From NCBI GenBank assembly GCA_021777105.1, contig JAIQZQ010000004.1:1-64000 (forward strand): a stretch of 64,000 nucleotides of DNA, written 5' to 3'. This document shows, piece after piece, positions 10,107 through 25,124 of this stretch; the first letter of the stretch is position 1, and each line of letters starts with the position of its first letter. The notes under the pieces are model-generated. The model made no database searches, was not told where the DNA came from, and saw only the letters and a list, made by a program, of their open reading frames with translations. The translations under genes and the position numbers were made by a program. The DNA is from Candidatus Anammoxibacter sp. (lineage in GTDB: Bacteria > Planctomycetota > Brocadiia > Brocadiales > Anammoxibacteraceae).

Positions 10107-10270
10107 AATATTATTTAATGCGCCGGCAAAGTTATATATACCAAAAAAATTGTAAATTTTTACCAAAACTTTAGTTCACTTTTAACTTTAGGGCGCTTTA
10201 GTCACTTTTCCGGTTTATTTGGATTTGTAAATGGTAGTAATACTTTTGGGATTTTATTTAGGGAGTTATT

Positions 10271-11383: not shown

Positions 11384-11743
11384 ATGTTTAAAGTAATAGA
11401 AGGAATATATCATAAAGGGAAAATTTGTATTCCTCAATCTACTGATATGATAGACGAAACAAAAGTTCTCATTATCTTTACGGATAATTCCGGCGAATCA
11501 GTTCATATAGATAAACCTTTAGTCGAATTGCCGGTGACAAATTCCGCGGAACCGGACAAATTGAAGTTAGAAGATATTGATGTGACAATCAGCACAAAAG
11601 AGAAGTATGAAAAAGAATTGTTAGCGCAAAATCATGAAGGCGAAGACAATGAGCGGCCAGGTTTCTTTACGTCAAAACCGATTAATATAGGCTATACTGA
11701 CGCTGACATGCTGGACGGAATAATTGGAGGCGTAAAGAATTGA
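11384..11743 (+). CDS. Putative antitoxin of a PIN-type toxin-antitoxin pair
   Basis: 119 residues, starting MFKVIEGIYHKGKICI, a short beta segment like that of small antitoxin or DUF104-type proteins, followed by a charged C-terminal half. It overlaps the next ORF by 4 bases (GTGA/ATTGA junction region at 11740), the usual arrangement of antitoxin and toxin. I do not recognise a clear DNA-binding motif. Function is inferred mainly from its position before a PIN-domain start. AGAGGGTG upstream of the ATG is an acceptable ribosome binding site. Confidence 0.55.
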   Translation: MFKVIEGIYHKGKICIPQSTDMIDETKVLIIFTDNSGESVHIDKPLVELPVTNSAEPDKLKLEDIDVTISTKEKYEKELLAQNHEGEDNERPGFFTSKPINIGYTDADMLDGIIGGVKN

Positions 11744-12000
11744 AAAAACTCTTTGTCGATACTTCCTTTCTTGTCGCATTTTGCAATATGAATGATAAAA
11801 ATCATACTGATTTAAAATACTTCCGTAACATTTTCCGCCATAAATTTAGAGAGTTGTTTTTCCAATTCTGCAAAATTGCGAATCTTAAATCAACAATTAT
11901 CATCCTGTTCCTTTCTCCCCTTTTTTCGCTAAATTCTGTTTTTAAAACCCCGAAGCTTTCCTTAACTGTTGAATTCAACACGACTTCCAAAATAATGTAG
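11740..12000 (+). pseudogene. Truncated PIN-domain toxin
   Basis: The first about 24 residues, KKLFVDTSFLVAFCNMNDKNH, are a clear PIN-domain N-terminus with the first metal-binding Asp (VDTS). From about codon 25 the frame changes to unrelated, low-complexity sequence (..FRNIFRHKFRELFFQFCK..) and ends at 2000 bases short of any acidic C-terminal motif; the later PIN catalytic acids are absent. Translation starts at a TTG or GTG-like codon overlapping the antitoxin stop. An insertion or deletion at about 11810 has inactivated the toxin, leaving the antitoxin gene behind. Confidence 0.6.
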
Positions 12001-12994
12001 TGTAGGCGCCTCCCCGCGCCGTGTCAGGCAAGTAAAGCCTATACGTTCAAATTAAGTAATCATGCGTTGAAATCGCTTGCTAATGAGCCCCCGCAAAATT
12101 TAAACAATCTTCCTCAAACGCAGACGGCGCCGGGACAAGCTCCATTCCCAAACTCCGTTTCCTGCCTGGATGCGGTTTAGAAAATTGTTTAAATTCCAAG
12201 CAATGGATGTTGTGTTTCGTCCCTCTATCCAACCTACATGCTGGATGCTGGATGCTACATACTGGATGACGTACGCTTGTTAGGTGTGCAATTTTGGGTT
12301 GGTATATTTTGCTTTTGGTTAGCGAAACCGAAGGTTCTCACCCAATTGACGGAATATTGAAATTAAATATATACCTTTAATTCCCCCTCCCTTGATGGGA
12401 GGGGTTAGGGAAGGGTGGTAAAAATCGCTCTTTTTCACAATGAATGTTGGGTTTCGTCCCTCTACCCAACCTACTTTTTATAAAACCGTTGTTTTTCCAC
12501 CATTTGCAGCCCCAAATCATAGTTTGCCCGCAATCCGAATTATCCAACCTTTTCTTTAATTGTCAAAACAGTTAAAACAAGATATAATGACCGCCTGTTT
12601 GTATGGTAGAGCGCAAAAGCAGTTTTGTAGGTTGGGTAGAGCGCTAGCGAAACCCAACATCGTTTGAAAAGATCAAAAGTACTTCGTAATTACTCAGCAT
12701 AAACTCAGAGAAAAGCGAATTTCGAACATCGAATTTCGAATAATGAAGTAAGAGCGAAAAATTGTGTAGGTTGGGTAGAGCTCTAGCGAAACCCAACATC
12801 AAATTAAAAAACCATATATAATTTGAGTTTTAAAGGCGCAATAAGCGCTGAACAGTGGCACAGGCATCCTGCCTGTGATCAATTAAAACACAGGCAAGGA
12901 TGCCTGTGCCACTATTTCTTTATGGAGCAATCTGCAAGATTGCGCCGGTTGTAAATATTATTTCAACCTTTTTACTTGTCAAAGGGTGTTTATT
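12001..12994. other. Noncoding repeat-rich region upstream of the DGR
   Basis: About 1 kb without a gene. REP-like hairpins with the GTAGGTTGGGTAGAG..CGAAACCCAACA pattern occur at about 12207-12237 and 12444-12473 (both reversed), 12627-12660 and 12766-12799. A CCCTCCCTTGATGGGAGGGG repeat lies at about 12365-12433, and a CACAGGCA foldback repeat at 12853-12913. A CTGGATG short tandem repeat lies near 12240-12268. The TTTACTTGTC..AAAGGG segment before 12995 provides the ribosome binding site of the next gene. Confidence 0.6.
12853..12913. repeat. AGTGGCACAGGCA foldback repeat, copy 1
   Basis: AGTGGCACAGGCATCC and its complement GGATGCCTGTGCCACT form a long hairpin around a CTGTG..CACAG inner stem. 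The same element recurs at 19007-19067 and 27070-27127. Confidence 0.7.
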
Positions 12995-15900
12995 ATGAAA
13001 ATACGTTATCTACACATATCAGACCTGCATTTTGCCGTTAAAGAGGAAGCTTTTAATCAAGGGCTTGTAACCCGCGCAATGGTAAAAAAGATCAAGGAGT
13101 TTGATGATAAAGTTGACTTTATCATCATAACCGGCGATCTTGTCTATTCCGGGAAAAAGGATGAATTTGATATTGCCGAACAATTCTGTAATGAACTTTT
13201 GAATGCCTGCAATTTAACAAATAAAAACATCTTCGTCGTTCCCGGCAATCATGATTTGGACAGGGAGGGCATGAACAAGGCAGTTGTTAAACGTATCTAT
13301 TCGTTTAATAAGCAGGATGAAGTAAACGAAATATTAGAGGATGAAACAATGCATCCCTTTATTATGAGCAAATTTGATAATTTTAACGCCTTTGCCTCAA
13401 AAGTTATGGGTAGAGAACTGTTTAACCCTGAAATAACCGGTTATCTTGAATCCCTCACAATTAATAAAAACAATCAGAATTGCAATGTAAACTTAATGGG
13501 CCTCAATTCATCCCTGTTTGCCGGTTATGAAGGCGACGATAAACAAAAGTTGGCCTTGGGATTGTATCAAATAGAGCCTTGTTTGGAAAAACTGGACAAT
13601 AATAATATAAGCATCGGTTTCTTCCACCACCCATTTTCATGCTACCACCCTGAAGATAAATTTTGTGAGAAAAAATTGGTAAGGGAGTTAGACCTAATCC
13701 TTACGGGGCATTGTCATTCGTCTGAAAATGTTAGCATAATTAGCCGCGCGGGACAAACTGTTTTGATAAGCGCCGGCGCGTCATTTGAAACAAGGGAAAG
13801 CTATAATTCGTTTAATGTGGTTGAGCTGGACACTGAAACCGGCGCCGGCAAAGCTATAGATTATAAATATATTTTTGACGACGGAGTGTGGATAAGGGAT
13901 AAAAATGCCAATCCGGATGAGGAAGATGGCTCCTTTCCTTTTCAAATTCAAAGAATGGCAAAAGCTAATGAAGTTCCACAGCTACCGGTAAAGGAGTCAA
14001 TGGTTGTTGACAAAAGTATCCCGTTAATAAGGATTAATTACAATCCAAACGAAGTCTTGCGCGCCTACAGAAATATGCTGATAAACAAGCTTCAACGCCT
14101 CCCACTGAGCGGAATAGATGTGGGCGCGAGCGACGCTGAGAATAACCGGGAGAAGATGGAGCTGGACAGCGTATACATAGAGCTGGATACAAAAACATTT
14201 GTGGAAATAGAAGATAAAGATAGTGAAAAGGGTGATTTTAAGCTCGGGTATAAAGATACACGCCCTCTTTCAGCTCTGGAAGCTGCGACAAAACATAGAT
14301 GCCTGGTTATCCTTGGCGATCCCGGCTCAGGCAAATCCACGTTTGTAAACCATCTTGCCCTTAGTTTTGCGTCGCAAAATGAAAATAAAGATATTAATGA
14401 TAAAAAAAGCAATGATATTTGGCCTGAAAGCGCTGGTAAAGTAGTTCCAATCCATATCATTCTGCGGGATTTTATTAAATCTGTTCCTGAAAGCGAAAAA
14501 AAGGCGGAGGTTAGGCATTTATGGGAATTTATCTGCAAACGTTTACGCGACCAAAAACTAGAGAATGCTGATGTTTTGCTTGAAGAAGCCCTTGATAATG
14601 GAACCGCTTTGGTCCTGTTGGACGGCCTTGATGAAATAACCGTTAAAGAGAAACGCGTTTTTGTGCGCAATGCCGTAGACGAGTTTGCTCAGAGGTATGA
14701 CAAATGCAGGTTAGTGGTCACATGCCGGACTCTCTCATATCAAAAGCCTGAGTGGCAATTAGACAAAAAAATGTTCCCGTCATTTGAACTTGCCCCGTTT
14801 GACGATGAAAAAATTGATGGTTTTATAACCGCCTGGTACGCCGACCTTGCGCGGATGGGCAATCTTGATACCGCCCGCGCTGATAATCTTGCGGCGCGGT
14901 TGAAAGTGTCTGTTACACGAAAAGACCTTTCGCTAATAGCTGACAACCCACTGCTTCTTACGGTCATGGCCCTTGTAAACACACACAAGGGAAGGCTGCC
15001 TGACGCAAGGGTTTTACTCTATGAGGAGTGTGTTGAAATACTGCTATGGCGTTGGGAGGAGATTAAAAGCTTTGATGACGATAAACAGCCAATGCTTCAG
15101 GAGCTTTTAATGGAAGCGGGAAGGACGGGGATTGATTTAAAAAAGGCTCTTTGGCAACTTGCCTTTACTGCTCACAAAGATTCAAAAAAAGACAACAGTG
15201 AATCGCTTGCTGACATCTCAAAATGGGATTTAATTAAAGGATTGTCATGTTTACATCCTGATAAAAACAAAGATTGGGCTGAAAAAGTAGTAGAAATAAT
15301 GAACATGCGGGCCGGGCTTCTGCTTGAACGCGAAACTGATGTCTACACATTCCCGCACAGGACTTTTCAGGAGTATCTGGCAGGCGCGCATCTTTCCGTA
15401 ATGCCAAGGTTTGAGGATGAGGTTATGAAATTAATAGAATCATCCAATCTATGGCGCGAGGTTATATTACTGGCCGTGGGCCGTCTTTTTCACGTGAGTG
15501 GAGAAACGGGAAGGCCGCTTTTGCTGGCGTGTAAATTGTTGACATCCGCAAAGGGAGACAGTGAAGCTGATTGGCGAAATATATGGTATGCAGGCGAAAT
15601 CTTGGTTGAAATAGGGATAAACAGGCTAACAAATGATAAATTTGATATTGATCAAAAAGAGCTAGCGCAAAAAAGGCTCGTGGAGTTGCTGGAGGGCGGC
15701 TATCTTAAACCTGTTGAACGCGCCGCCGCCGGAACGGCGCTGGGCAAAATAGGGGATACGCGGTTTGATCCCAATAAATGGCATTTGCCGAAAGATGATA
15801 ATCTTGGTTTTGTGCGTATTGAAGCCGGTAAGTTTCAAATGGGAAGCGATGAGAACGAATCAGATGCTTTTAAGGATGAGTTTCCCAGGTCTGAAGTTTC

Positions 15901-16516
15901 AATTCCTGAATTTTCGATTTCAAAGTACCCTGTAACCGTTGCTCAATTTAGGGCATTTGTTGAAGATAGCGGATATGAAGCTGGAAAGGGTTGGGAAAAC
16001 AGCGCAGATAACTCGCCTGTAACGTCTGTGTCGTGGGATGACGCAAAAGAGTATTGCAAATGGTTGAGCGAGAAACTGAAAGGAATTGGATATGGCGAAG
16101 TGAGGTTGCCAACTGAGGCGGAGTGGGAAAAGGCGGCCCGTGGAGAAGGGGCCGGCAAATATCCCTGGGGAGATGAAGCGGATATCAACAAGATGAATTT
16201 TGGTGAAACAGGTATAAATGGAGTTTCACCGGTAGGCTGTTTTCCGGGAGCCGGAAATTCGTATGGCTTGCAGGATATGAACGGCAATGTATGGGAGTGG
16301 GTTGAGGATGACTGGCATGCTGATTACAATGGGGCGCCTGATGATGGCCGGGCGTGGATTGATGATATTAATAAAAGGGGCTCTGACCGGGTTCTGCGCG
16401 GCGGTTCGTGGGCTGACTTCGCCCGTATCTGCCGTTCGGCTTCCCGTGGCAGGAACAGGTCCGGCATCCGCTTCGACTTTTTCGGTTTCCGGCTTGTCTT
16501 GCCCAGGTCAGTTTAG
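12995..16516 (+). CDS. DGR variable protein 1: metallophosphoesterase-NACHT-FGE-sulfatase/C-type lectin
   Basis: 1173 residues from the ATG at 12995, chosen over a GTG at 12986 because AAAGGG sits 8 bases before it. Residues 1-240 are a calcineurin-like phosphoesterase: HISDLHF, GDLVYSG, GNHD, and a later GHCHS. A NACHT-type STAND NTPase follows, with Walker A GDPGSGKS at about 441, Walker B LVLLDGLDE at about 540 and the downstream FPHRTFQEYLAG motif. From about 937 to the end is an FGE-sulfatase (C-type-lectin-fold) domain with RLPTEAEWEKAARGE, NGNVWEW and LRGGSW. The last 44 residues are variable repeat VR1. In related proteins the lectin fold displays diversified residues for ligand binding. 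Binding could open the NACHT switch and trigger the phosphoesterase. A role in conflict or defence is inference. Confidence 0.92.
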   Translation: MKIRYLHISDLHFAVKEEAFNQGLVTRAMVKKIKEFDDKVDFIIITGDLVYSGKKDEFDIAEQFCNELLNACNLTNKNIFVVPGNHDLDREGMNKAVVKRIYSFNKQDEVNEILEDETMHPFIMSKFDNFNAFASKVMGRELFNPEITGYLESLTINKNNQNCNVNLMGLNSSLFAGYEGDDKQKLALGLYQIEPCLEKLDNNNISIGFFHHPFSCYHPEDKFCEKKLVRELDLILTGHCHSSENVSIISRAGQTVLISAGASFETRESYNSFNVVELDTETGAGKAIDYKYIFDDGVWIRDKNANPDEEDGSFPFQIQRMAKANEVPQLPVKESMVVDKSIPLIRINYNPNEVLRAYRNMLINKLQRLPLSGIDVGASDAENNREKMELDSVYIELDTKTFVEIEDKDSEKGDFKLGYKDTRPLSALEAATKHRCLVILGDPGSGKSTFVNHLALSFASQNENKDINDKKSNDIWPESAGKVVPIHIILRDFIKSVPESEKKAEVRHLWEFICKRLRDQKLENADVLLEEALDNGTALVLLDGLDEITVKEKRVFVRNAVDEFAQRYDKCRLVVTCRTLSYQKPEWQLDKKMFPSFELAPFDDEKIDGFITAWYADLARMGNLDTARADNLAARLKVSVTRKDLSLIADNPLLLTVMALVNTHKGRLPDARVLLYEECVEILLWRWEEIKSFDDDKQPMLQELLMEAGRTGIDLKKALWQLAFTAHKDSKKDNSESLADISKWDLIKGLSCLHPDKNKDWAEKVVEIMNMRAGLLLERETDVYTFPHRTFQEYLAGAHLSVMPRFEDEVMKLIESSNLWREVILLAVGRLFHVSGETGRPLLLACKLLTSAKGDSEADWRNIWYAGEILVEIGINRLTNDKFDIDQKELAQKRLVELLEGGYLKPVERAAAGTALGKIGDTRFDPNKWHLPKDDNLGFVRIEAGKFQMGSDENESDAFKDEFPRSEVSIPEFSISKYPVTVAQFRAFVEDSGYEAGKGWENSADNSPVTSVSWDDAKEYCKWLSEKLKGIGYGEVRLPTEAEWEKAARGEGAGKYPWGDEADINKMNFGETGINGVSPVGCFPGAGNSYGLQDMNGNVWEWVEDDWHADYNGAPDDGRAWIDDINKRGSDRVLRGGSWADFARICRSASRGRNRSGIRFDFFGFRLVLPRSV
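16379..16510 (+). repeat. DGR variable repeat VR1
   Basis: 132 bases, from GGCTCT to CCCAGGTCA, aligned without gaps to TR (18485-18616). I count 14 substitutions in the variable core, all opposite template adenines (for example AAC to GAC, TTC, ATC or GGC). Non-A positions are identical until one C-to-G change in the last bases. The final conserved block GTTTCCGGCTTGTCTTGCCC is the likely IMH (initiation of mutagenic homing) region. The repeat encodes residues 1129-1172 of the upstream protein. Confidence 0.95.
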
Positions 16517-16543
16517 TAAACAAGCAGGTAAACGGAGCGCGGA

Positions 16544-16607
16544 ATCGAGTGAAGCGGATGGCGCAGGCCGTGGCGGAGCAGGCCGGAGCCATCCGGTTCG
16601 TCTCGAT
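16544..16607. repeat. Inverted-repeat element 3' of VR1
   Basis: Nested arms ATCGAG (16544-16549)/CTCGAT (16602-16607) and CGGATGGC (16555-16562)/GCCATCCG (16588-16595), with an inner GGCC/GGCC pair, can form one long imperfect hairpin or cruciform. GGAGCGCGGA flanks it on both sides as a direct repeat (16534-16543 and 16608-16617). DGR targets in other bacteria carry a hairpin just after the IMH, so this is a candidate homing-enhancing structure. Confidence 0.65.
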
Positions 16608-16626
16608 GGAGCGCGGAGTGGGTCGG

Positions 16627-16731
16627 TAATTGGTAATTGGTTATTGGTAATTGGTTATTGGTAATTGGTAATTGGTTATTGGTAATTGGTTATTGGTTAT
16701 CGGTTATCGGTTATCGGTTATCGGTAATCGG
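16627..16731. repeat. Heptanucleotide tandem repeat array after VR1
   Basis: Fifteen units of 7 bases, of the forms TAATTGG, TTATTGG, TTATCGG and TAATCGG, run without interruption. The left ten end in TTGG and the last five in TCGG. An equivalent array of pure TTATCGG follows VR2. Confidence 0.9.
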
Positions 16732-16739
16732 TGGGTTTT

Positions 16740-16954
16740 GTAGGTTGGGTAGAGCGCCAGCGAAACCCAACATCAAATTAAAAAACCATATATGATTTTG
16801 AGTTTGGGGAGCGCGAAGGGTGTTTGTGTTTCAATTTTCACCTTTGCCGGCGCATGGGATTGTTGGGTTTCGTTCCACTCTACCCAACCTACAAATAGCT
16901 TGTGGTTGTTTTGTTGGGTTTGTAGGTTGGGTAGAGCTCTAGCGAAGCCCAACA
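16740..16954. repeat. Three REP-like hairpin repeats downstream of VR1
   Basis: Copies at 16740-16773, 16861-16892 (reversed) and 16922-16954 share GTAGGTTGGGTAGAG followed by CGAAACCCAACA, where TTGGGT pairs with ACCCAA. The intervening sequence contains the AAACCATATATGATTTTGAG block that also follows copies at 12799, 18952 and 22930. Confidence 0.8.
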
Positions 16955-16994
16955 TAAATCATAAATACATTTAAAATACAAAATATTAATAAAT

Positions 16995-17483
16995 ATGTCA
17001 CTACAATATAAATTTTTTATGATAAGGGTTCAAGATCATTTGGAATCAGAGGAAGCGCTTAACAGATTTTTAAGGTCGGTTAGCATAATTAATGTTCAGC
17101 GCGAGTTTGTGGCGGAAGGGGCGAACTCCTTTTGGAGTATAGTCGTTGAATACATGGCAAAGCAGCCCGGCAGTAATGGTGATAGGAGTGCTTCCAAAAA
17201 GAGCAGGCTTGATTATAAAGAGATTTTGTCAGAGGATGATTTTGCGGTTTTTGCAAAACTTCGCGACTGGCGCAAAACCAAGGCGGATGAGGAGGCTATC
17301 CCGGTTTACACCATTTTTACAAATGAACAGTTGGCTCAAATTGCGCAGAGTAGGATTGTTGAAAAGGCTAATCTACAACAAATTGCTGGGCTTGGTGAAG
17401 CAAGGTTAAAAAAATATGGGGACGATATCATAGGCGTTATCAGCCTTGAACTTCAAAATAAAAGGGATGAAACTGGGAAATGA
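16995..17483 (+). CDS. DGR-associated HRDC-domain accessory protein
   Basis: 162 residues. The N-terminal part (about 8-55) has EEALNRFLRSVSIINVQREF and NSFWSIVVEYM, a segment I associate with small HRDC proteins found beside DGR reverse transcriptases. The C-terminal half (about 75-155), with FAVFAKLRDWRKTKADEEAI, NEQLAQIAQSR and LQQIAGLGEARLKKYGDDII, is a standard HRDC helical nucleic-acid-binding domain. The stop overlaps the RT start by 4 bases (ATGA), so translation is coupled. It takes the place of the Avd accessory protein found in phage DGRs, and presumably binds template RNA or cDNA with the RT. Start at 16995; an ATG at 17019 is an alternative. No strong ribosome binding site is visible. 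Confidence 0.88.
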   Translation: MSLQYKFFMIRVQDHLESEEALNRFLRSVSIINVQREFVAEGANSFWSIVVEYMAKQPGSNGDRSASKKSRLDYKEILSEDDFAVFAKLRDWRKTKADEEAIPVYTIFTNEQLAQIAQSRIVEKANLQQIAGLGEARLKKYGDDIIGVISLELQNKRDETGK

Positions 17484-18484
17484 AGAGAGCGGGCTCTTTA
17501 TATAATCGCATATCTTCTTATGTGAATCTTTGCGAAGCTTACAATAAGGCTGTTAGAGGAAAACAAAAACGAAGAGAGGTTATAAAATTTCGTGATGATT
17601 TTGATGCTAATATTCAAAAAATTAGAAGACAATTGATAGAGAAAGACCTTGATGTGGGAGATTATCATTTTTTTAGAGTCAATGATCCTAAACCAAGAGA
17701 TATTTGCGCTGCTTCATTTGCAGAAAGAGTGTTACACCATGCGATCATGAATGTTTGCAACCATGCGCTCGAATCATACGCAATATTTGATTCATATGCA
17801 TGCCGAAAAGGAAAGGGCGCGCCAAAGGCGTTGGCAAGAGCTTGCGAGTTTGCGGGGAGATATGGCTGGTATTTAAAACTGGATATAAGGAAATATTTTG
17901 ATTCTATTGATCATGATATTATGTTGCGTTTGTTAGCAAGACGCATCAAGGACAATGATTTGTTGAATCTTTTTGGCGACATTCTTGAAACCTATCATAA
18001 AAAGTGTGGAAAAGGATTGCCTATCGGCAATCTCATATCCCAGCATCTTGCAAATTTTTATCTGGGATATTTTGATCATTGGGTTAAAGAGGCAAGGATG
18101 ATCAAAGGGTATGTTAGATACATGGATGATTTTATTCTTTTTGGAAACACAAAATCTGATTTGAAATCAAAATATTTACAAGTTAAAAAATTTCTTAAAT
18201 CTGAATTAAGATTAGAGTTAAAGAGTAATTTTCAGCTAAACAAATGCAAATACGGAGTACCATTTTTAGGGTACAGGGCGTTTGCCGCAAAAATATTGCT
18301 CTCTCAGGCAAGCAGGAAACGGTTTATAAGAAAATTCAGAAAATATGAGGAAAGGTTTCTGAATGGTAAATGGAGCGCTGAAGAGCTTGTGATCCATATG
18401 GAACCGTTAATTGAATTTACAAAGCATGCTGACACTCTAAATTTTAGGAGAACAATTATTAAAGGAACAAGGGTTTCATTCTAA
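17480..18484 (+). CDS. DGR reverse transcriptase
   Basis: 334 residues, typical for DGR RTs, consisting only of fingers/palm with a short thumb and no protease, RNase H or maturase domain. Visible motifs: domain A-like LDIRKYFDSIDH, the DGR-diagnostic IGNLISQHLANFYLG (where retroviral and intron enzymes have QGxxxSP), the catalytic RYMDDFILF, and a downstream LNKCKYGVPFLGYRAF. The family copies TR RNA into cDNA with frequent misincorporation at adenines, and the cDNA then replaces the VR. It is translationally coupled to the HRDC gene and its stop codon touches the TR. All catalytic aspartates are present, so the element looks active. Confidence 0.96.
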   Translation: MKRAGSLYNRISSYVNLCEAYNKAVRGKQKRREVIKFRDDFDANIQKIRRQLIEKDLDVGDYHFFRVNDPKPRDICAASFAERVLHHAIMNVCNHALESYAIFDSYACRKGKGAPKALARACEFAGRYGWYLKLDIRKYFDSIDHDIMLRLLARRIKDNDLLNLFGDILETYHKKCGKGLPIGNLISQHLANFYLGYFDHWVKEARMIKGYVRYMDDFILFGNTKSDLKSKYLQVKKFLKSELRLELKSNFQLNKCKYGVPFLGYRAFAAKILLSQASRKRFIRKFRKYEERFLNGKWSAEELVIHMEPLIEFTKHADTLNFRRTIIKGTRVSF

Positions 18485-18616
18485 GGCTCTAACCGGGTTC
18501 TGCGCGGCGGTTCGTGGGCTAACAACGCCCGTAACTGCCGTTCGGCTTACCGTAACAGGAACAGGTCCGGCAACCGCAACGACAATATCGGTTTCCGGCT
18601 TGTCTTGCCCAGCTCA
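18485..18616 (+). repeat. DGR template repeat TR
   Basis: 132 bases starting GGCTCTAACCGGGTTCTGCG directly after the RT stop (18482-18484) and ending CCCAGCTCA. Rich in AAC codons in the VR frame (nine in the core), as expected of a template that diversifies Asn codons to many residues. About 23 adenines lie in the variable core. The end differs from both VRs at one base (CCCAGC against CCCAGG), a candidate IMH/IMH* difference that would protect TR from self-homing. Confidence 0.95.
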
Positions 18617-18790
18617 ACGAATCGGCGGATGCCGATCCGCTGACCCGAATGAAATCCCGCCCCTGTTTCATGAGTTGCGCAGGCGCATGTTGTCTGCTCA
18701 TTTCTGTTGTTACAGGGCAAAAATGAAACGCCATATCAGGGTTAGTAACAGGATTGGACTGTTTTGTGAAAATCCTGATATGGTTTTATT
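18617..18790 (+). ncRNA. Predicted structured 3' spacer of the DGR template RNA
   Basis: Directly after TR lie two overlapping hairpins, ATCGGC-GGAT-GCCGAT (18621-18636) and GCGGAT-GCCG-ATCCGC (18625-18640). A longer stem CCATATCAGG (18731-18740)/CCTGATATGG (18774-18783) follows, trailed by TTTTATTTT. Pairs CCCTGT (18661-18666)/ACAGGG (18712-18717) and GTTTCAT/ATGAAAC (18665/18723) could also form. In the Bordetella phage system the spacer RNA 3' of TR primes cDNA synthesis, so a similar role is likely. The transcript ends are unknown. Confidence 0.45.
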
Positions 18791-18809
18791 TTATAAGCAA
18801 TACAGTTTT

Positions 18810-19344
18810 GTAGGTTGGGTAGAGCGCTAGCGAAACCCAACATCAATTGTGGAAATCAAAAGCGAATATCGAACCGCAGAACATCGAATAACGAATCATG
18901 AAGTAAGAGCGAACAAAAGTAGGTTGGGTAGAGCGCTAGCGAAACCCAACATCGAATTAAAAAACCATATATGATTTTGAGTTTGTAGGGCGAAAATGGC
19001 GCTGAGCAGTGGCACAGGCATCCTTGCCTGTGATTAATTGAAACACAGGCAAGGATGCCTGTGACACTATTTTTTTTGACTTTAAAATCTTTCAATTGTA
19101 TGGGGTGTTGGGTATCAATTTACTCCTTTGCCGGCGCATGGGAGTGTTGGGTTTCGCTAGCGCTCTACCCAACCTACAATATATTTTTTTTGGATATACA
19201 CTTGTAAGGCGTGCAACTGTGGGTTGGTGTGTTTTGCTTTTGATTTTAGGACTTGTTCCCAAACTTCGATTTGGGAACTCAATTGTGTTTGAAACTTTGT
19301 TTCCTGTTTTGTTGGTTGGGTAGTGCATAGCGGGCCCCAACATC
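18810..19344. repeat. Cluster of REP-like hairpins and one CACAGGCA foldback
   Basis: GTAGGTTGGGTAGAGCGC..CGAAACCCAACA copies at 18810-18843, 18919-18952 and 19145-19178 (reversed), with a degenerate one at 19312-19344. A CACAGGCA foldback lies at 19007-19067. Together they fill most of the space between the TR and the second variable-protein gene. Confidence 0.8.
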
Positions 19345-19371
19345 GAATCTTTTACCATTGGAGGTTTTGTT

Positions 19372-22300
19372 ATGTTAATACCTATTGTAGGTTCAGTAAT
19401 TTCCGTAATCGCCAAAAAATCCGCGGATATAACATGGAAAAAATTGTCCAGAAGGGATAAAGTTTTAAGCATACTTGCGGCCGCCAACTTTAAACCGGAA
19501 AGGCCTGAAGATGATTTTGAATCTATATATGCCCATACTTTGGTAGAGTTTGGCATTGAAAAAGACTTACTACTGCTGGAGTTTTTTCGCAATGATAACA
19601 TTGTAAATGCGTTTAGAAGCTCTTTTGAGAAAAAAGATAACTCTATTTTTAATCAGGGCGCTGAAAGGTTTATTGAAGAGACAAAGGTTGGCGACGGCAT
19701 TTGTGCGAAAAAAATTGATATCCATCTGGAGTTTGAGGGTTTTAAAGCTATATTTTATGAGATGGCAAATCTGGCGAGCCGTCCGTCGGATCGTATTACG
19801 CATCATAAACTGGATGAATTGTTAGAGTTGATCAAAAACGGCAGTATAAACGAGATCAGGGCGGAAAACCTGAAGATGATTCAGGGTGGTCTTGCCGTGC
19901 AACTAAAGGATTGGTTTGGCACTCTCGGCTACAGTTTTGGCGGGCATGAGATAATGGGTGAGTGGTTTTGTGAAATGATTATCAAGATACCGGCTCGCCG
20001 TGGATTTGACGTTATATTTGTAAAAGGCGTTGAGGGAAAGGCGGAAATTGGGGATATTGAAGATGTGATAAAAGCTGTGAAGAGTCATAAAGTTGATGAG
20101 GGGTGGCTTGTATCTTCCAATATGAAGACAAAAGGCGCTGTTGATGTTGCTAAGGAGACGGAAAATATTTTTTGTTATACATTTGATGAGTTGATAGATG
20201 AGCAGGCTGATTTCTCAAGATACTTTGAATGGCTTAAAGAATATGTAAATGAGCGGGGGATTGACACTGATTACATACCACTGGCATGCAACCGCGAGAC
20301 TTATGACGGCGCAGGAAATAAAAGGGATAAGGTTGAACGTTATGGAAGAGAGGAGGGGTGGATGGAGGGCTATATTAATCAATGGATTAACGACCCTTGC
20401 AAAGAGCACATATCTATTCTTGGTGAATTTGGAACTGGAAAGACATGGTTTACCCACCACTTTGCTTATGAAATGATGTTGAAGTATGAGGACGCAAAAT
20501 CCAAGGGGTTGAGACGCCCCAGAGTCCCTTTGGTGGTGCAGCTTCGCGATTATTCGAAAAAATTAGAGAGCGAGGCTCTGTTTTCAGATTTCTTTTTCCG
20601 TAAACATGAGATTCGATTAACTGGATACTCTGCTTTTGAACAACTTAACCGTATGGGCAAGCTGTTGCTGATTTTTGACGGGTTTGATGAAATGGCTGAT
20701 AAGCTGGATAAGCAGAAGATGATTGACAATTTCTGGGAGCTTGCAAAGGTGGTTGCGCCTGGGGCTAAGGCAATACTCAGCTGCCGGACTGAACATTTTC
20801 CCGACGCAAAACTTGGGCGCGACTTGCTGAATGCGGACCTACAGGCTTCAACCGCAAAACTTACGGGCGACCCTCCACAGTTTGAGGTTCTGAATTTGGA
20901 GAAGTTTGATAATGATCAGATTCGCGCTGCTCTGTTAAAGAAGTGCGCGCCGGAAATTGTTGACCGGGTGATGGGCGACCAGGATCTGCTGGACCTTGCC
21001 GCCAGGCCGGTTATGCTGGACTTTCTTCTGGAAGCGTTGCCGGATGTTGACAAAACCGGCATTGTTGACCTATCGCGTGTATATTTATACGCAATAACAA
21101 GGAAACTGGAAAGGGATGTCAAGTCCGAGCGCACGTTTACTTCAACAGCGGATAAGCTCTACTTTATGTGCGAGCTGGCGTGGGAGATGATAACAACTGA
21201 AAAGATGAGCATAAACTATCGGGCATTTCCAGTGAGGTTGAAGAATCTGTTTGGCCCTGCTATCTCGGAAGAGAAGGATCTTGACCACTGGCATTACGAT
21301 ATGATGGGCAATACACTTCTGATACGCAATGATGACGGCGATTACAAACCCGCGCATCGTTCGCTTTTGGAATTCCTTGTGGCTTACAAGCTGGTTGCCG
21401 GCCTGGGGCTGATGCCGGACGACTTTATTAAAACGGCTTCCCTACAATCTGAGCAGGCAATAGATTACGGGCTTGAAAAAGAGGATTATACATGGCAAAG
21501 ATACTTTCTCAGAAAATTTGGCGAAGATGGCGAGATGATAAAGCCGGCGCCGTTAAGAAGATTTTCTTCTGATGATAAAGATATCTTTTTTAGCCAAATA
21601 GGCGCCATGGCTGATACTGTATTGCGTTTTGTGTACGAAATAACCAATGTTGAAGAGACAAGGCTGTCTTTTCAGAATATGTTAGCAGCCCTTTTAGATG
21701 AATTTAAAGAAGGGACGCGTGAGCCGGCAAAGGAGCAAGAACTCTTACAGTTTATATATAGATACAGGTCGCTCAGCCGGGGATGGGAGAGGGATGCGGG
21801 TAAATCCAGTTTTGCCGGTGAATTCTGGAGAGTGTACTATAATAAAGAGCGTTCGTTGAATTGTTGCAACGGCGCCACTAAAACCATGTCAATAAAATGC
21901 ATTGATTCTGGAGCCGTATCATTTGAAATGGTTGAAATTGGGCCTGGTTCATTTTTAATGGGAGATGAAGATGTTAATCCAATTCATAAGGTTAATATAA
22001 CAAAGCCGTTTATGATGGCCGCCACACAGGTAACGCAGGAAATTTACCGCGCAGTTATGGGAAGTAATCCAGATAGGTTTAAAGGGGATGATCTGCCGGT
22101 GGAAAGAGTTTCATGGTTTGACGCCATAGAATTCTGTAACACGCTTTCAAAGATGTTAAATCTTGAAACGGCATATACTCGTAACGGCGATAATATTGTA
22201 TGGAACAGGGATAGTCCGGGATTTCGGCTTCCAACTGAGGCAGAGTGGGAGTATGCGTGCCGCGCAGGTTCTACAGGCATGTATGCGTGCGGAGATAATG

Positions 22301-22626
22301 AGTCTGATTTAGAAGATATGGCCTGGTTTAATGTAAACAGCGCAAAAAAAACACATCCTGTAAAAACTAAAGAGCCAAATAACTGGGGGCTGTTTGATAT
22401 GCACGGCAATGTGTGGGACTGGGTATGGGATTGTTATGGCTCTTATCAGGGTGGCTTGTTGCAGGATCCTGTGTGTTCAAATGGCTCTAACCGGGTTCTG
22501 CGTGGCGGTTCGTGGGCTTACGACGCCCGTAACTGCCGTTCGGCTTGCCGTGGCGGGGACAGGTCCGGCTCCCGCTCCGGCAATTTCGGTTTCGGTTTCC
22601 GGCTTGTCTTGCCCAGGTCAGTTTAG
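19372..22626 (+). CDS. DGR variable protein 2: NACHT-FGE-sulfatase/C-type lectin with a distinct N-terminus
   Basis: 1084 residues from an ATG preceded by GGAGG. Residues 1-330 lack the phosphoesterase of protein 1. They comprise a helical segment and a region (about 200-290) with FDVIFVKGVEGKAEIGDIED, DEGWLVSSNMKTKGAVDVAK and YTFDELIDEQADFSRYFEWL, which looks like a restriction-endonuclease-like fold; I cannot identify a full PD-(D/E)xK set, so activity is uncertain. The NACHT domain has Walker A GEFGTGKT at about 351 and Walker B LLLIFDGFDE at about 431. The FGE-sulfatase/lectin domain starts near 851 (RLPTEAEWEYACRAG, HGNVWDW, LRGGSW). Residues 1038-1083 are variable repeat VR2. Shared NACHT-lectin parts with different N-termini imply the same sensing logic with a different effector. 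Confidence 0.9.
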   Translation: MLIPIVGSVISVIAKKSADITWKKLSRRDKVLSILAAANFKPERPEDDFESIYAHTLVEFGIEKDLLLLEFFRNDNIVNAFRSSFEKKDNSIFNQGAERFIEETKVGDGICAKKIDIHLEFEGFKAIFYEMANLASRPSDRITHHKLDELLELIKNGSINEIRAENLKMIQGGLAVQLKDWFGTLGYSFGGHEIMGEWFCEMIIKIPARRGFDVIFVKGVEGKAEIGDIEDVIKAVKSHKVDEGWLVSSNMKTKGAVDVAKETENIFCYTFDELIDEQADFSRYFEWLKEYVNERGIDTDYIPLACNRETYDGAGNKRDKVERYGREEGWMEGYINQWINDPCKEHISILGEFGTGKTWFTHHFAYEMMLKYEDAKSKGLRRPRVPLVVQLRDYSKKLESEALFSDFFFRKHEIRLTGYSAFEQLNRMGKLLLIFDGFDEMADKLDKQKMIDNFWELAKVVAPGAKAILSCRTEHFPDAKLGRDLLNADLQASTAKLTGDPPQFEVLNLEKFDNDQIRAALLKKCAPEIVDRVMGDQDLLDLAARPVMLDFLLEALPDVDKTGIVDLSRVYLYAITRKLERDVKSERTFTSTADKLYFMCELAWEMITTEKMSINYRAFPVRLKNLFGPAISEEKDLDHWHYDMMGNTLLIRNDDGDYKPAHRSLLEFLVAYKLVAGLGLMPDDFIKTASLQSEQAIDYGLEKEDYTWQRYFLRKFGEDGEMIKPAPLRRFSSDDKDIFFSQIGAMADTVLRFVYEITNVEETRLSFQNMLAALLDEFKEGTREPAKEQELLQFIYRYRSLSRGWERDAGKSSFAGEFWRVYYNKERSLNCCNGATKTMSIKCIDSGAVSFEMVEIGPGSFLMGDEDVNPIHKVNITKPFMMAATQVTQEIYRAVMGSNPDRFKGDDLPVERVSWFDAIEFCNTLSKMLNLETAYTRNGDNIVWNRDSPGFRLPTEAEWEYACRAGSTGMYACGDNESDLEDMAWFNVNSAKKTHPVKTKEPNNWGLFDMHGNVWDWVWDCYGSYQGGLLQDPVCSNGSNRVLRGGSWAYDARNCRSACRGGDRSGSRSGNFGFGFRLVLPRSV
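22483..22620 (+). repeat. DGR variable repeat VR2
   Basis: 138 bases. Aligned with TR it shows 13 adenine-position substitutions, one non-A change (CGC to CGT, silent, near the 5' end) and a 6-base in-frame insertion duplicating TTCGGT near the 3' end, which adds Gly-Phe. The last block GTTTCCGGCTTGTCTTGCCC equals that of VR1 and TR. Its substitutions differ from those in VR1, as expected from independent mutagenic homing. Confidence 0.95.
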
Positions 22627-22664
22627 TAAACAAGCAGGTAAACGGAGCGCGGAATCGAGTGAAC

Positions 22665-22800
22665 CGGATGCGCAGGCCGTGGCGGAGCAGGCCACCGCCT
22701 TCCGGTTCGTCTCGATGGAGCGCGGAGTGGGGCGGATGCGCAGGCCGTGGCGGAGCAGGCCACCGCCTTCCGGTTCGTCTCGATGGAGCGCGGAGTGGGG
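22665..22800. repeat. Perfect 68-bp tandem duplication 3' of VR2
   Basis: Two identical 68-base units (22665-22732 and 22733-22800) begin CGGATGCGCAGG and end GGAGTGGGG. Each unit holds the main arms (CGGA..TCCG, with GGCGG..CCGCC) of the inverted-repeat element that follows VR1, and the first is preceded by the matching ATCGAG (22654-22659). Confidence 0.9.
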
Positions 22801-22803
22801 CGG

Positions 22804-22887
22804 TTATCGGTTATCGGTTATCGGTTATCGGTTATCGGTTATCGGTTATCGGTTATCGGTTATCGGTTATCGGTTATCGGTTATCGG
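22804..22887. repeat. Heptanucleotide tandem repeat array after VR2
   Basis: Twelve perfect copies of TTATCGG. The flanking sequence (GGAGTGGGGCGG before, TGGGTTTTGTAGG after) matches the array after VR1, so both belong to one duplicated 3' block. Confidence 0.92.
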
Positions 22888-22895
22888 TGGGTTTT

Positions 22896-23049
22896 GTAGG
22901 TTGGGTAGAGCGCTAGCGAAACCCAACATTGAATTAAAAAACCATATATGATTTTGAGTTTTGGGGAGCGCGGTGGGTGTTTGTGTTTCAATTTTTTTCT
23001 TTGCCGGCGTAAGGGAGTGTTGGGTTTCGTTCCACTCTACCCAACCTAC
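22896..23049. repeat. Two REP-like hairpins after VR2
   Basis: A forward GTAGGTTGGGTAGAGCGC copy at 22896-22930 and a reversed one at about 23018-23049, in the same order and with the same spacer (AAACCATATATGATTTTGAG) as the pair at 16740-16892. The stretch 23050-23150 shows nothing else. Confidence 0.8.
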
Positions 23050-23150
23050 AAATTGGATGTGGCTCGCTTGTCAGGTGTGCAACTGTGAGTTTGTGTGTTT
23101 TGCTTTTGATCCGCTTTTGTCCTGTGGTTTCGGCTGAAGTTTGATTTTGG

Positions 23151-23408
23151 TTATGCTGATATTAGCTCAATTCTTGGCTCAGGCGGTTTAGGCAGGTCGA
23201 GATGTATAATCATAACCGGCGCTCCTTTAGATTTAAGTTTATCGGCTGTTTTTTGGTTCTCTTTTGACAGCTCAGGGTCATTATCAGGCAGAAAAACCAG
23301 TTGCGCTCCTTCCGGGATTTGGTCCAGCGCGTCTGGTTGTTCAAATACATATCTCATCCATTCCGCGTGTAAATCAAGATTTTTTTTAACAATTTCAGTT
23401 TCTTCCAT
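23151..23408 (-). CDS. Small acidic protein, DUF5647-like
   Basis: 85 residues, with HAEWMRYVFEQPDALDQIPE and GAQLVFLPDNDPELSKENQK, a pattern I know from a small family of uncharacterised proteins (DUF5647-like) in cyanobacteria and other environmental bacteria. It overlaps the end of the upstream minus-strand gene by 14 bases, so the two form an operon. Size and coupling suggest a toxin-antitoxin-type or regulatory pair, without direct proof. TCCTCC complement (GGAGGA) lies about 7 bases before the start. Confidence 0.65.
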   Translation of the reverse strand: MEETEIVKKNLDLHAEWMRYVFEQPDALDQIPEGAQLVFLPDNDPELSKENQKTADKLKSKGAPVMIIHLDLPKPPEPRIELISA

Positions 23409-23721
23409 ATAATTCCTCCTCGAATCTTTGGCGATATTTTTGCCAATTTTGTTTTATGTCGTTGGTTGCGAATGTCATGCTTAAATTATAATTACCCATA
23501 GAGAGAGGCTCTTTGTCTGTTGATCCATCCGAATGGATCAGATCTCGGTGGAAAAATCCGTGTTTCGTGTCATAGCGGACAATCGTATGCCATTTATTTA
23601 CTATTTTAGCTTCATATTGGACAACAAATCCAACAATTTTATTTTTATCTTTATCGGCCTGAACTCTTAGCCTGTTCTTCATAGAACTGGAAAGAAAGAA
23701 AACATACTCAATATTTTTCAT
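23395..23721 (-). CDS. Small protein of unknown function paired with the DUF5647-like gene
   Basis: About 108 residues from the ATG at 23721 (a TTG at 23736 would add five). The core KIVGFVVQYEAKIVNKWHTI..RYDTKHGFFHRDLIH is a beta-rich domain, resembling an uncharacterised family (DUF7718-like) that I have seen beside small DUF5647-type proteins. It precedes and overlaps the gene ending at 23151. The pair sits at the edge of the repeat-rich DGR island. A toxin-antitoxin role is a guess from layout only. Confidence 0.6.
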   Translation of the reverse strand: MKNIEYVFFLSSSMKNRLRVQADKDKNKIVGFVVQYEAKIVNKWHTIVRYDTKHGFFHRDLIHSDGSTDKEPLSMGNYNLSMTFATNDIKQNWQKYRQRFEEELYGRN

Positions 23722-23736
23722 ATAAAAAAGAGACAA

Positions 23737-24092
23737 ACTGTGTTGAGTTTTTAGGCTCTATTATAAAACTTTATGTCAATTAATGCTCTGGTGAATTTCA
23801 AACTAGTAAAATACGAAAATCATGTCAAGGTAAATGAAATTTACTGAAGAAAATGTTTTTAAGCATTGTGAAAAACGAATGATTAATGTTGGATAACGAA
23901 CGCCGGATTTTGAGGTAACGGCAAAAAGGAAAACAGGGCCGGGATGACTGTGGCCCGGCTTGTTAAAATCCTAAAAATTTGCTCAGTATATGCGTAGATT
24001 ATAATGCTTGTAAACCAGTGTTAAACCCTGTACAATGCAGCCTTTGCAGAGGTTTATCTGTTTATTTTGAACAATATTAGGAGGATGTGTTA
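23737..24092. other. Divergent intergenic region upstream of hflK
   Basis: 356 bases between divergent genes, probably holding promoters for both. A short GC-rich hairpin GCCGGG (23938-23943)/CCCGGC (23954-23959) is visible, with no T-run. Nothing else recognisable. Confidence 0.4.
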
Positions 24093-25124
24093 ATGCCAAA
24101 TGGTTATGATGGAAAACCGCCGGATTTTAATTTTGACAGTCTTAATTTAAAAGCCAATAAGAAATATATATTTATAGGGATCGCTGTTTTGGCCGTTATA
24201 ATTATGATTTCGTCGGCGTATTACACTGTAAAGGCGAATCAGGAGGCCGTGATATTGCGATTTGGCCGGTACTCTGAGACCGTGGGGCCGGGGCTTCATT
24301 TTAAGGTTCCTTATATTGATAAGGTGCTGGTCGGCGAGGTTAAACGCATATACAATGAGGAGTTTGGATTTAGAACAAGGTCAAGCGGAAGGGTTAGCAC
24401 ATTTGATTACAGCTTTCCCGGGGCTTCGGATGAGTCGCTGATGCTTACGGGCGATTTAAACTGCGCGGATGTGCATTGGGTGATCAGGTATAAGATAAAA
24501 AATTTGCGTGATTTCTTTTTTAATGTAAGAAACGTGCGGGAGACGTTAAGGCAGGTTTCGCAGGGGGTTATGCGGCGGGTTGTTGGCGACAGGTCAATCG
24601 ACGAGGTGTTGACCATCGGCAGAAATGAGATTGAGGATGTGGCTAAGCTTGAGGTTGCAAGAAATCTTGACAATTATGGGTGCGGCATTTCAGTACAGTC
24701 GGTTATGTTAAAAGGCGTTAACCCTCCGGGCGCGGTTAAGAACGCATTTGACGCGGTAAATCAGGCTGTTCAGTTAAGGGATAAGATTATTAACGACGCG
24801 GAGGGACAGAAAAACAAGATATTGCCGGCTGCTTTGGGTAAAAAGGAGCAGATAATTAAGGAGGCCGAGGGTTACCAGATTAAAAGGGTAAACGAGGCGC
24901 AGGGCGACACTAACGCTTTCCTTGCAATACTTGAGGAGTATAAGAAGGCTCAGGAGGTTACGAGGAGAAGGTTGTATCTTGAAACGCTTTCTGAGATATT
25001 CCCGAAATGTGAAAAACTGTATTTGATAGATGAGGATCAAAAAACGCTTTTGCCTCTATTGAATCTGGGCGGAAAAAATGGCGGCCAGGGACTTGATGAA
25101 TTAATAGGAAAGGGGGCTAAATAA
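24093..25124 (+). CDS. hflK: HflK, membrane SPFH/prohibitin-family protease regulator
   Basis: 343 residues from the ATG at 24093, set by AGGAGG 8 bases upstream; a GTG at 24087 is less likely. One transmembrane helix at about 28-48 (IFIGIAVLAVIIMISSAYYT) is followed by an SPFH/band-7 domain with AVILRFGRYSETVGPGLHFK, QVSQGVMRRVVGDRSIDEVL and a C-terminal coiled coil with NEAQGDTNAF. In E. coli HflK and HflC form a complex around the FtsH protease at the inner membrane. The next gene, hflC, overlaps the stop by one base, consistent with a two-gene operon. The C-terminus is not Gly-rich as in enterobacteria. Confidence 0.92.
   Translation: MPNGYDGKPPDFNFDSLNLKANKKYIFIGIAVLAVIIMISSAYYTVKANQEAVILRFGRYSETVGPGLHFKVPYIDKVLVGEVKRIYNEEFGFRTRSSGRVSTFDYSFPGASDESLMLTGDLNCADVHWVIRYKIKNLRDFFFNVRNVRETLRQVSQGVMRRVVGDRSIDEVLTIGRNEIEDVAKLEVARNLDNYGCGISVQSVMLKGVNPPGAVKNAFDAVNQAVQLRDKIINDAEGQKNKILPAALGKKEQIIKEAEGYQIKRVNEAQGDTNAFLAILEEYKKAQEVTRRRLYLETLSEIFPKCEKLYLIDEDQKTLLPLLNLGGKNGGQGLDELIGKGAK

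What the first reader, a model, noticed from the sequence alone, without database searches (positions are those of the whole stretch)
12995..23049. Complete DGR with one template, one RT, one HRDC accessory and two flanking target genes
The core RT has the DGR-type IGNLISQ and YMDD motifs. TR (18485-18616) matches VR1 (16379-16510) and VR2 (22483-22620), both at the 3' ends of NACHT-lectin genes. Symmetric flanking of one element by two targets is uncommon, and the TR begins at the base after the RT stop. The genes look intact, so the system seems active.
Basis: partly seen in the sequence, partly recalled or inferred. Interest (0 to 1): 0.95.

Follow-up and report, generated by a model that had tools for sequence, protein, structure and literature searches.

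The report
Hypermutation element with conserved RNA tail
This bacterial genome holds all the parts of a diversity-generating retroelement, with one template lying between two likely immune-sensor genes that differ from it almost only at its adenines, and the template runs straight into a sequence, conserved in related elements across several phyla, that is predicted to fold into the RNA tail on which the error-prone copying would start.

Summary
The finding is real. RT, HRDC accessory, TR and two targets are present and open. In the 128-nt TR core, 14 of 14 VR1 and 13 of 14 VR2 mismatches are at template adenines; VR2 also has a 6-nt in-frame duplication. The RT lies in a supported clade of HRDC-linked DGR RTs. 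Both targets are NACHT proteins with C-terminal FGE/C-type-lectin VR domains. One RT with two STAND-lectin targets is a published kind (Dore 2024, PMC10907252), and a TR beside the RT stop is the rule.
What I add: the TR runs into a conserved, covarying RNA domain (18611-18783). It starts within 40 nt of the TR end in 40 of 43 HRDC-type loci with a detected TR. Searching 294 genomes with the RNA model alone gave 9 new matches, 8 beside DGR lectin/TR sequence. No Rfam 15 family matched it. By analogy with the BPP-1 spacer RNA it likely binds the RT and primes cDNA. Handa 2025 (Nature), which may overlap, could not be read. A second, Avd-type DGR with a like two-target layout lies on contig C26. 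Activity is untested.

The parts
12995..16516 (+). Target gene 1: calcineurin-like metallophosphoesterase + NACHT + FGE/C-type lectin
   Evidence: Pfam PF00149, PF05729, PF03781
16379..16506 (+). VR1, 3' end of target 1
   Evidence: 14 of 14 mismatches to TR at template A
16995..17483 (+). HRDC accessory gene; N-terminal ~78 aa conserved but without a Pfam match
   Evidence: PF00570 70.1 bits; alignment of 36; N-terminus no Pfam match at E<=1 in three members scanned
17480..18484 (+). DGR reverse transcriptase, overlaps HRDC gene by 4 nt
18485..18612 (+). Template repeat (TR) core, begins at the base after the RT stop
18611..18783 (+). Conserved structured RNA tail directly 3' of TR
   Evidence: R1 112.3 bits E 3.2e-24; R2 101.4 bits; covariation; fold z -4.97
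19372..22626 (+). Target gene 2: NNH5 + NA-iREase1 + NACHT + FGE/C-type lectin
   Evidence: Pfam; lectin end best matched by TvpA 2y3c, E 2.7e-43
22483..22616 (+). VR2, 3' end of target 2, with in-frame 6-nt duplication
   Evidence: 13 of 14 mismatches at template A
12620..12921 (+). Repeat 5' of target 1, paired with 18803-19076
   Evidence: 79% over 304 columns
18803..19076 (+). Repeat 5' of target 2, paired with 12620-12921
16379..16905 (+). VR1 plus 3' flank, paired with 22483-23062
   Evidence: 81% over 581 columns
22483..23062 (+). VR2 plus 3' flank, paired with 16379-16905

Best explanation
This is a complete HRDC-type diversity-generating retroelement whose one template RNA, predicted to fold at its 3' end into a conserved tail that likely recruits the reverse transcriptase and would prime copying, is likely reverse-transcribed with errors at adenines and pasted into the lectin ends of two predicted NACHT immune-sensor genes. 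Shown here: the parts and their order, adenine-specific TR/VR differences in both targets, RT clade membership, and covariation and conservation of the tail next to the TR. Inferred: (1) TR and tail are one transcript; (2) the tail does what the Sp RNA of phage BPP-1 does (binds RT plus accessory and primes cDNA); (3) cDNA replaces VR1 and VR2; (4) the varied lectin face senses invaders and the NACHT ATPase then triggers the N-terminal module (a phosphoesterase in target 1; NNH5 plus an inactive-nuclease-like domain in target 2).
For: Adenine bias p 1.1e-12 and 1.5e-10; all 24 TR adenines at codon positions 1-2. RT. HRDC. Targets. Tail: unfitted MAFFT alignment of 10, 33 pairs, 20 with two-sided changes, covariation 0.514 against 0.266 shuffled and at most 0.151 slid; model-fitted 36 sequences 0.680 against 0.222 and 67 sequences 0.709 against 0.217. 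G-U cells outnumber A-C cells 49 to 8 in the unfitted alignment and 288 to 63 in the fitted one, which points to the plus-strand RNA. The tail starts within 40 nt of the TR end in 40 of 43 HRDC-type loci (R2, E<=2), including four whose TR lies upstream of the RT. Search of 294 genomes with the RNA model alone: 9 new matches, 8 beside lectin/TR sequence, 6 beside a DGR RT; none of the 9 loci is a near-copy of a locus already held. Only match with E below 1 in this genome.
Against: No expression, cDNA or population data. The tail model does not match the BPP-1 spacer or three other phage DGRs, so 'works like Sp' is analogy. Three of 43 loci lack a tail match (L025, L072, L078); of the same-order DGRs, L105 and L106 have none. 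L012 holds a second strong copy without a TR, and R1 gave off-place hits in L070 (E 0.005), L016 and L028 (E about 1). The single-sequence MFE recovers only half of the model pairs on average (26 of 32 for the window). Pairing between TR 3' end and tail showed no single conserved partner. No hairpin of 14 nt or more was found after either VR, only a short 4-bp palindrome.
Confidence: 0.78

Rival explanations
1. A degenerate or silent DGR: the parts are intact relics, and the VR differences date from old activity.
For: No activity data; one silent C>T and a 6-nt duplication in VR2; heptamer arrays and dispersed repeats around the locus.
Against: RT, HRDC and both long targets are open; all other VR mismatches are at adenines; the window tail still folds as the model asks (26 of 32 pairs in its MFE).
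Confidence: 0.15
2. The tail is only a transcription terminator or a stable 3' end, with no role in priming or RT binding.
For: The last hairpin is long and followed by a T-rich stretch, though the terminator scan did not list it.
Against: Separate hairpin regions and conserved single-stranded motifs are kept (consensus); it follows the TR even where the RT lies downstream (L018, L048, L061, L069), where a terminator would cut the RT off from an upstream promoter (inference).
Confidence: 0.15
3. The tail is a DNA-level element (cruciform or recombination site) rather than RNA.
For: BPP-1 targets need a DNA hairpin/cruciform after the VR (PMC3240598, passages read).
Against: The element is at the TR, not at VRs; G-U pairs outnumber A-C 49 to 8 in the unfitted alignment and 288 to 63 in the fitted one.
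Confidence: 0.05
4. The targets are not immune sensors but signalling or enzymatic FGE-like proteins.
For: Target 1 lectin end is closer to ToxD/PvdO/FGE structures than to TvpA; lectin domains on STAND proteins had not been characterised experimentally (PMC10907252, section read).
Against: N-terminus of target 1 matches PADLOC PDC-S60 (E 8.6e-46) and NCBIfam DS8 antiphage protein (E 1.4e-40, far below its cut-off) over the phosphoesterase region only; target 2 has no PADLOC match; domain plan matches published STAND-lectin conflict systems.
Confidence: 0.25

Closest known systems
Thiohalocapsa sp. PB-PSB1 DGR 3/DGR 6 and clade 5D DGRs (Dore et al. 2024, PMC10907252; abstract, sections 6 and 12, and passages read)
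   Same: One RT with two targets that carry a central NACHT/nSTAND domain and a C-terminal FGE/C-type lectin VR; several DGRs per genome; one PB-PSB1 target combines phosphodiesterase, NACHT, vWA and lectin domains (passage)
   Different: Different N-terminal modules here (phosphoesterase without vWA; NNH5 + NA-iREase1); host lifestyle unknown here; clade 5D placement not tested because no labelled reference RTs were at hand
Bordetella phage BPP-1 DGR (NC_005357)
   Same: RT homology, adenine-specific TR/VR differences, structured RNA 3' of TR (Sp recruits bRT-Avd and primes cDNA; PMC12875486 passage read)
   Different: Avd not HRDC; gene order; tail model R2 does not match its spacer
Treponema denticola TvpA (2y3c)
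   Same: FGE-type C-type-lectin variable protein; best PDB match of target 2's lectin end (E 2.7e-43)
   Different: No NACHT or effector module (from recall)
DS8 / PDC-S60 antiphage phosphoesterase proteins
   Same: N-terminal ~300 residues of target 1 align
   Different: Only that region matches; 138.9 bits against a cut-off of 790 for DS8

Membership tests
Diversity-generating retroelement | RT of the DGR clade | tested here: met
Diversity-generating retroelement | TR and VR that differ at template adenines | tested here: met
   14/14 and 13/14
Diversity-generating retroelement | Accessory gene (Avd, HRDC or MSL; list from PMC10053308 passage) | tested here: met
   HRDC, PF00570
Diversity-generating retroelement | VR at the 3' end of a C-type-lectin (or Ig) target | tested here: met
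   FGE-sulfatase domains to the C-terminus of both targets
Diversity-generating retroelement | Mutagenic retrohoming in cells | not testable with these tools
   no reads or assays
Dore clade 5D STAND-lectin DGRs | RT falls in clade 5D | not tested
   no clade-labelled RT sequences were available; only an unlabelled HRDC clade was recovered
Dore clade 5D STAND-lectin DGRs | Two targets with NACHT/nSTAND plus one lectin domain | tested here: met
Dore clade 5D STAND-lectin DGRs | Multicellular or aggregate-forming host | not testable with these tools
   genome unnamed
BPP-1-type DGR | Avd accessory | tested here: not met
   the accessory here is HRDC; Avd is at the second locus on C26
BPP-1-type DGR | Hairpin/cruciform a few bases after VR | tested here: inconclusive
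   no hairpin of 14-42 nt near either VR end, but an 11-nt palindrome with a 4-bp stem, too short for that scan, lies 4 nt after both VR cores (16511-16521, 22621-22631)
BPP-1-type DGR | Sp RNA of the same family as this tail | tested here: not met
   R2 without filters gives no match at the BPP-1 spacer up to E 10
Antiviral STAND (Avs/bNACHT) | Effector - NTPase - sensor architecture | tested here: met
   Walker motifs visible
Antiviral STAND (Avs/bNACHT) | Protects against phage | not testable with these tools
   no assay
Rfam 15 RNA families | Tail matches a catalogued family | tested here: not met
   12 matches in window 10000-26000 at E<=0.1, all miRNA families and none at the tail; none at the tails of L012-L017 and L081 at E<=1

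The most novel reading that the evidence does not exclude
The sequence 3' of the TR is an uncatalogued RNA family, the priming and RT-docking domain of most cellular DGRs. One fold is shared by HRDC-only, HRDC-plus-Avd and Avd-only DGRs and by DGRs with no recognised accessory, from bacterial chromosomes to an archaeal virus and a crAss-like phage, and it is distinct enough from the BPP-1 spacer to find DGRs by itself. In this genome it serves an element whose two target slots, bounded by matching 5' and 3' repeats, have had their gene bodies exchanged while keeping one template.
Probability: 0.5. Interest if true: 0.78.

Novelty: new member of a known kind. Interest (0 to 1): 0.58.

Why it matters
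As a DGR with two NACHT-lectin targets this is one more example of a published group. The tail matters more: to my knowledge DGR priming has been worked out for one phage element, and this gives a defined, covarying RNA with named helices for the HRDC-linked group, plus a model that finds DGRs without using the RT. Two DGRs of different accessory type with a like two-target layout in one genome also make a natural comparison.

Tried and rejected
Rejected: group II intron, retron or DRT RT. Rejected: the tail as coding sequence, given its indels and compensatory changes. A hand-written regular expression for the last hairpin gave 187 mostly meaningless hits and was dropped. MAFFT over 18 diverse tails misaligned the last hairpin and was not used for counts. 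No conserved TR-to-tail pairing emerged. Hairpins of 14-42 nt after VRs: not enriched over 63 VR ends (median 0.0 against -0.19 kcal/mol; the control used a coarser grid). The Rfam miRNA names at 12853-12914 and 19007-19069 are most likely chance matches to a dispersed hairpin repeat. The three best relatives of target 1 on plasmids (Thiodictyon, nearly full length; Chlorohelix and Alisedimentitalea, partial) have no RT annotated within 8 kb (the gene table is incomplete) and no tail match.

Rows dropped: the RT tree left out 27 named loci to keep it small. One search used 49 of the 52 R1 matches and one search used 59 of the 67 R2 matches (left out: loci of unnamed relatives and, L079 and the second L012 copy). 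One search left out that L012 copy. TR counts use loci where my script found a TR/VR pair (54 of 82 loci, window and C26 included). 'HRDC' was a label by exclusion in the tree; one search shows the gene for these rows except L015, whose contig begins about 440 nt before the RT.
Full report
OBSERVATION. The window lies on contig C66 of a 7.65-Mb, 142-contig genome. Order on the plus strand: target 1 (12995-16516), HRDC gene (16995-17483), RT (17480-18484), TR (18485-18612), target 2 (19372-22626). In the 128-nt TR core there are 24 adenines: 13 at codon position 1, 11 at position 2, none at position 3. VR1 (16379-16506) differs at 14 sites, all A; VR2 (22483-22616) differs at 14 sites, 13 at A and one silent C>T, and has an extra TTTCGG in frame. 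Nine adenines are changed in both VRs, at four of them to the same base; 18 of 24 are changed in at least one. Nine TR codons are AAC or AAT; the template allows about 10^13 lectin variants per target. A search of the assembly with the TR gives only these three places.

PROTEINS. Target 1: metallophosphoesterase (PF00149), NACHT (PF05729) and FGE-sulfatase/C-type lectin (PF03781). Target 2: NNH5 (PF22736), NA-iREase1 (PF22722), NACHT and the same lectin class. Target 2's lectin end is closest to the Treponema DGR variable protein 2y3c (E 2.7e-43); target 1's is closer to ToxD/PvdO/FGE, with 2y3c at 4.2e-14. The phosphoesterase region of target 1 matches antiphage profiles DS8 and PDC-S60, but only over about 300 residues and, for DS8, far under the cut-off; target 2 has no PADLOC match at E<=1e-5. 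The RT's best PDB match is 8ub7 (listed as reverse transcriptase; BPP-1 bRT by recall), E 2.5e-36; the next are 5hhj ('Retron-type', 1.4e-16) and a group II intron RT (4.3e-16). In a tree of 68 RTs (27 further loci left out for size) the window RT sits in a 50-row clade (SH-aLRT 99) holding all 49 rows labelled HRDC plus one RT of a same-family genome, L103, whose locus also has an HRDC gene. HRDC genes are not confined to that clade: L104, L105 and L111, outside it, have HRDC as well as Avd. The window RT's nearest rows are from Thermodesulfobacteriota, a 'Deltaproteobacteria' bin, Verrucomicrobiota and Kiritimatiellota, at up to 57% identity, while RT matches in its own order (9 of 59 genomes at E<=1e-20, this one included) are 44% or less, which suggests horizontal transfer (inference).

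SECOND DGR IN THE SAME GENOME. Contig C26 (L092) holds target A (phosphoesterase-NACHT-lectin), a bAvd gene (PF22296, 61 bits over a cut-off of 40), a TR (8092-8217), an RT and target B (lectin, with a NACHT match just below the Pfam cut-off), with A-biased VRs in both targets (16 of 17 and 18 of 19 mismatches at A). Its RT is outside the HRDC clade. One genome thus has an HRDC-type and an Avd-type DGR, each with a target on either side.

RNA TAIL. Reading past the TR in relatives showed a shared pattern of hairpin regions with fixed motifs. The window copy is 18611-18783; its predicted fold is -64.8 kcal/mol, z -4.97 against shuffles. On a plain MAFFT alignment of ten tails, RNAalifold gives 33 pairs, 20 with a two-sided compensatory change; 92.0% of cells pair against 79.7% shuffled and at most 51.3% slid. 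A covariance model from these ten (R1) searched 95 sources (1.06 Mb) and gave 52 matches at E<=5, the window's at 3.2e-24. A second model from 36 matches (R2) searched 96 sources and gave 67 matches at E<=2, 31 of them not among the 36 it was built from. In the 67-row alignment 642 cells carry two-sided changes against 207.5 shuffled, and the covariation score is 0.709 against 0.217 shuffled and at most 0.160 slid; that alignment is fitted to the structure, so the ten-sequence result is the cleaner one, and shuffles do not allow for relatedness. The count 'pairs with a change on both sides' is not special in the large set (31 observed, reached by 31 of 500 shuffles). G-U cells are 49 against 8 A-C in the unfitted and 288 against 63 in the fitted alignment, which points to the plus-strand RNA. 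Folding each tail alone recovers on average half of the model pairs.

PLACEMENT. Of 82 loci examined, a TR/VR pair was detected in 54; 43 of these are HRDC-type, and R2 matches (E<=2) start within 40 nt of the TR end in 40 of the 43 (misses L025, L072, L078). In L018, L048, L061 and L069 the TR lies upstream of the RT and the tail still follows the TR. Named hosts span Thermodesulfobacteriota, Verrucomicrobiota, Kiritimatiellota, Lentisphaerota, Planctomycetota, Bacteroidota, Chlorobiota, Cloacimonadota and Fibrobacterota (record titles and tree labels). In 12 of 12 loci without HRDC (L079, L080, L082, L084-L092), a search without filters gives a same-strand match starting between -25 and +42 nt of the TR end, at 7.4 to 22.1 bits; it is the locus's best match in 9 of the 12, not in L082, L084 and L092 (L085's TR). 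Such searches give about five matches per locus, so one landing there by chance is roughly a 1% event per locus (my estimate). No Avd match was found in L079-L091. Among same-order DGRs, R2 at default filters matches L104 and L111 (HRDC plus Avd), L107 and L108 (Avd only, weak, 37-52 nt past the TR) and L109, but not L105 or L106. Of seven phage or viral DGRs, two have a fair match at the TR end (archaeal virus vir525, 24.2 bits, -2 nt; crAss-like cr52_1, 23.2 bits, -45 nt), ANMV-1 a weak one (12.0 bits, +46 nt), and four, BPP-1 among them, none.

SEARCH WITH THE RNA ALONE. R2 was run on 294 genomes drawn from the same phylum, this one included (strict filters). Eight have a match at E<=0.001, this genome included; there are nine new matches in seven other genomes, none a near-copy of a locus held before. 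Eight of the nine lie beside DGR lectin/TR sequence, six beside a DGR RT and three with an A-biased TR/VR pair in the fetched stretch (up to 1.5 kb each side); the ninth (L125) ends 21 nt upstream of the tail, where its TR would be. In this whole genome R2 finds only the window copy, plus one E 5 match.

MECHANISM. In BPP-1 the spacer RNA 3' of the TR folds, recruits bRT-Avd and primes cDNA from an internal adenine (passage of PMC12875486); [quoted passage not shown] The tail here has the same place and fits the same job, with HRDC in place of Avd. That is inference: my model does not match the BPP-1 spacer. BPP-1 also needs a hairpin/cruciform a few bases after its VR (PMC3240598, passages). 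Here no hairpin of 14-42 nt was found, but both VRs are followed, after 4 nt, by an 11-nt palindrome with a 4-bp stem (16511-16521, 22621-22631), so that point is open.

TARGET SLOTS. The sequence 5' of target 1 (12620-12921) matches that 5' of target 2 (18803-19076) at 79%, and VR1 plus 3' flank (16379-16905) matches VR2 plus 3' flank (22483-23062) at 81%, while the gene bodies show one DNA match of 29 nt. At protein level the lectin domains are 41% identical and the NACHT cores 26%. Part of the 5' match is a ~64-nt hairpin repeat with at least about 35 copies genome-wide (84 matches on both strands; 40 of 403 first-look candidates were scored), but no other scored place matches as long a stretch. 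The simplest reading is a duplicated slot whose gene body was later replaced (inference).

NOVELTY. Two STAND-lectin targets around one DGR is published (PMC10907252, sections 6 and 12 read). The tail has no Rfam 15 match. The listings of my library searches (titles and abstract starts, up to 20 per search) showed no paper on a conserved RNA in HRDC-type DGRs. Handa et al. 2025 (Nature) is not held; from recall its abstract says that the BPP-1 mechanisms are probably conserved in distant DGRs, so overlap is likely and I do not claim first sight. Host: the partial 16S looks planctomycete-like to me from recall, and ribosomal protein L13 is closest to two Planctomycetota genomes, at 58% and 57%, with Desulfobacteraceae and Smithellaceae close behind at 54-55% and five other Planctomycetota at 49-50% (14 of 16 genomes matched); this is tentative.

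Noticed in passing
L092 (G000:C26:18000-37900): A second DGR in the same genome, Avd-type, with a phosphoesterase-NACHT-lectin target upstream and a lectin target with a sub-threshold NACHT match downstream of one RT.
   Followed up: partly
L012:4279-4408: A second strong copy of the RNA tail (105 bits) with no TR seen in front; possibly an orphan or moved copy.
   Followed up: partly
L032, L038, L053 (and L029): The RT reading frame runs on through the TR without a stop, so translation would make an RT with a lectin-like end.
   Followed up: no
L104, L105, L111: DGR loci of the same order that carry both an HRDC and a bAvd accessory gene.
   Followed up: partly
window 12852-12916 and 19007-19069: Dispersed ~64-nt hairpin repeat, at least about 35 copies genome-wide, beside both target genes; Rfam miRNA hits there are most likely spurious.
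   Followed up: partly
window 16625-16725 and 22801-22888: Heptamer arrays (GGTTATT x14, CGGTTAT x12.6) just after both targets, and a 68-nt GC-rich unit present once after target 1 and twice after target 2.
   Followed up: partly
window 12627-23054: Many copies of a ~33-nt palindromic repeat (GTAGGTTGGGTAGAGC...) between genes.
   Followed up: no
window 16995-17228: The N-terminal ~78 residues of the HRDC accessory form a conserved domain with no Pfam match; a structure job was not finished.
   Followed up: partly
window 16511-16521 and 22621-22631: An 11-nt palindrome (4-bp stem, 3-nt loop) lies 4 nt after both VR cores, the place where BPP-1 has its larger hairpin.
   Followed up: no
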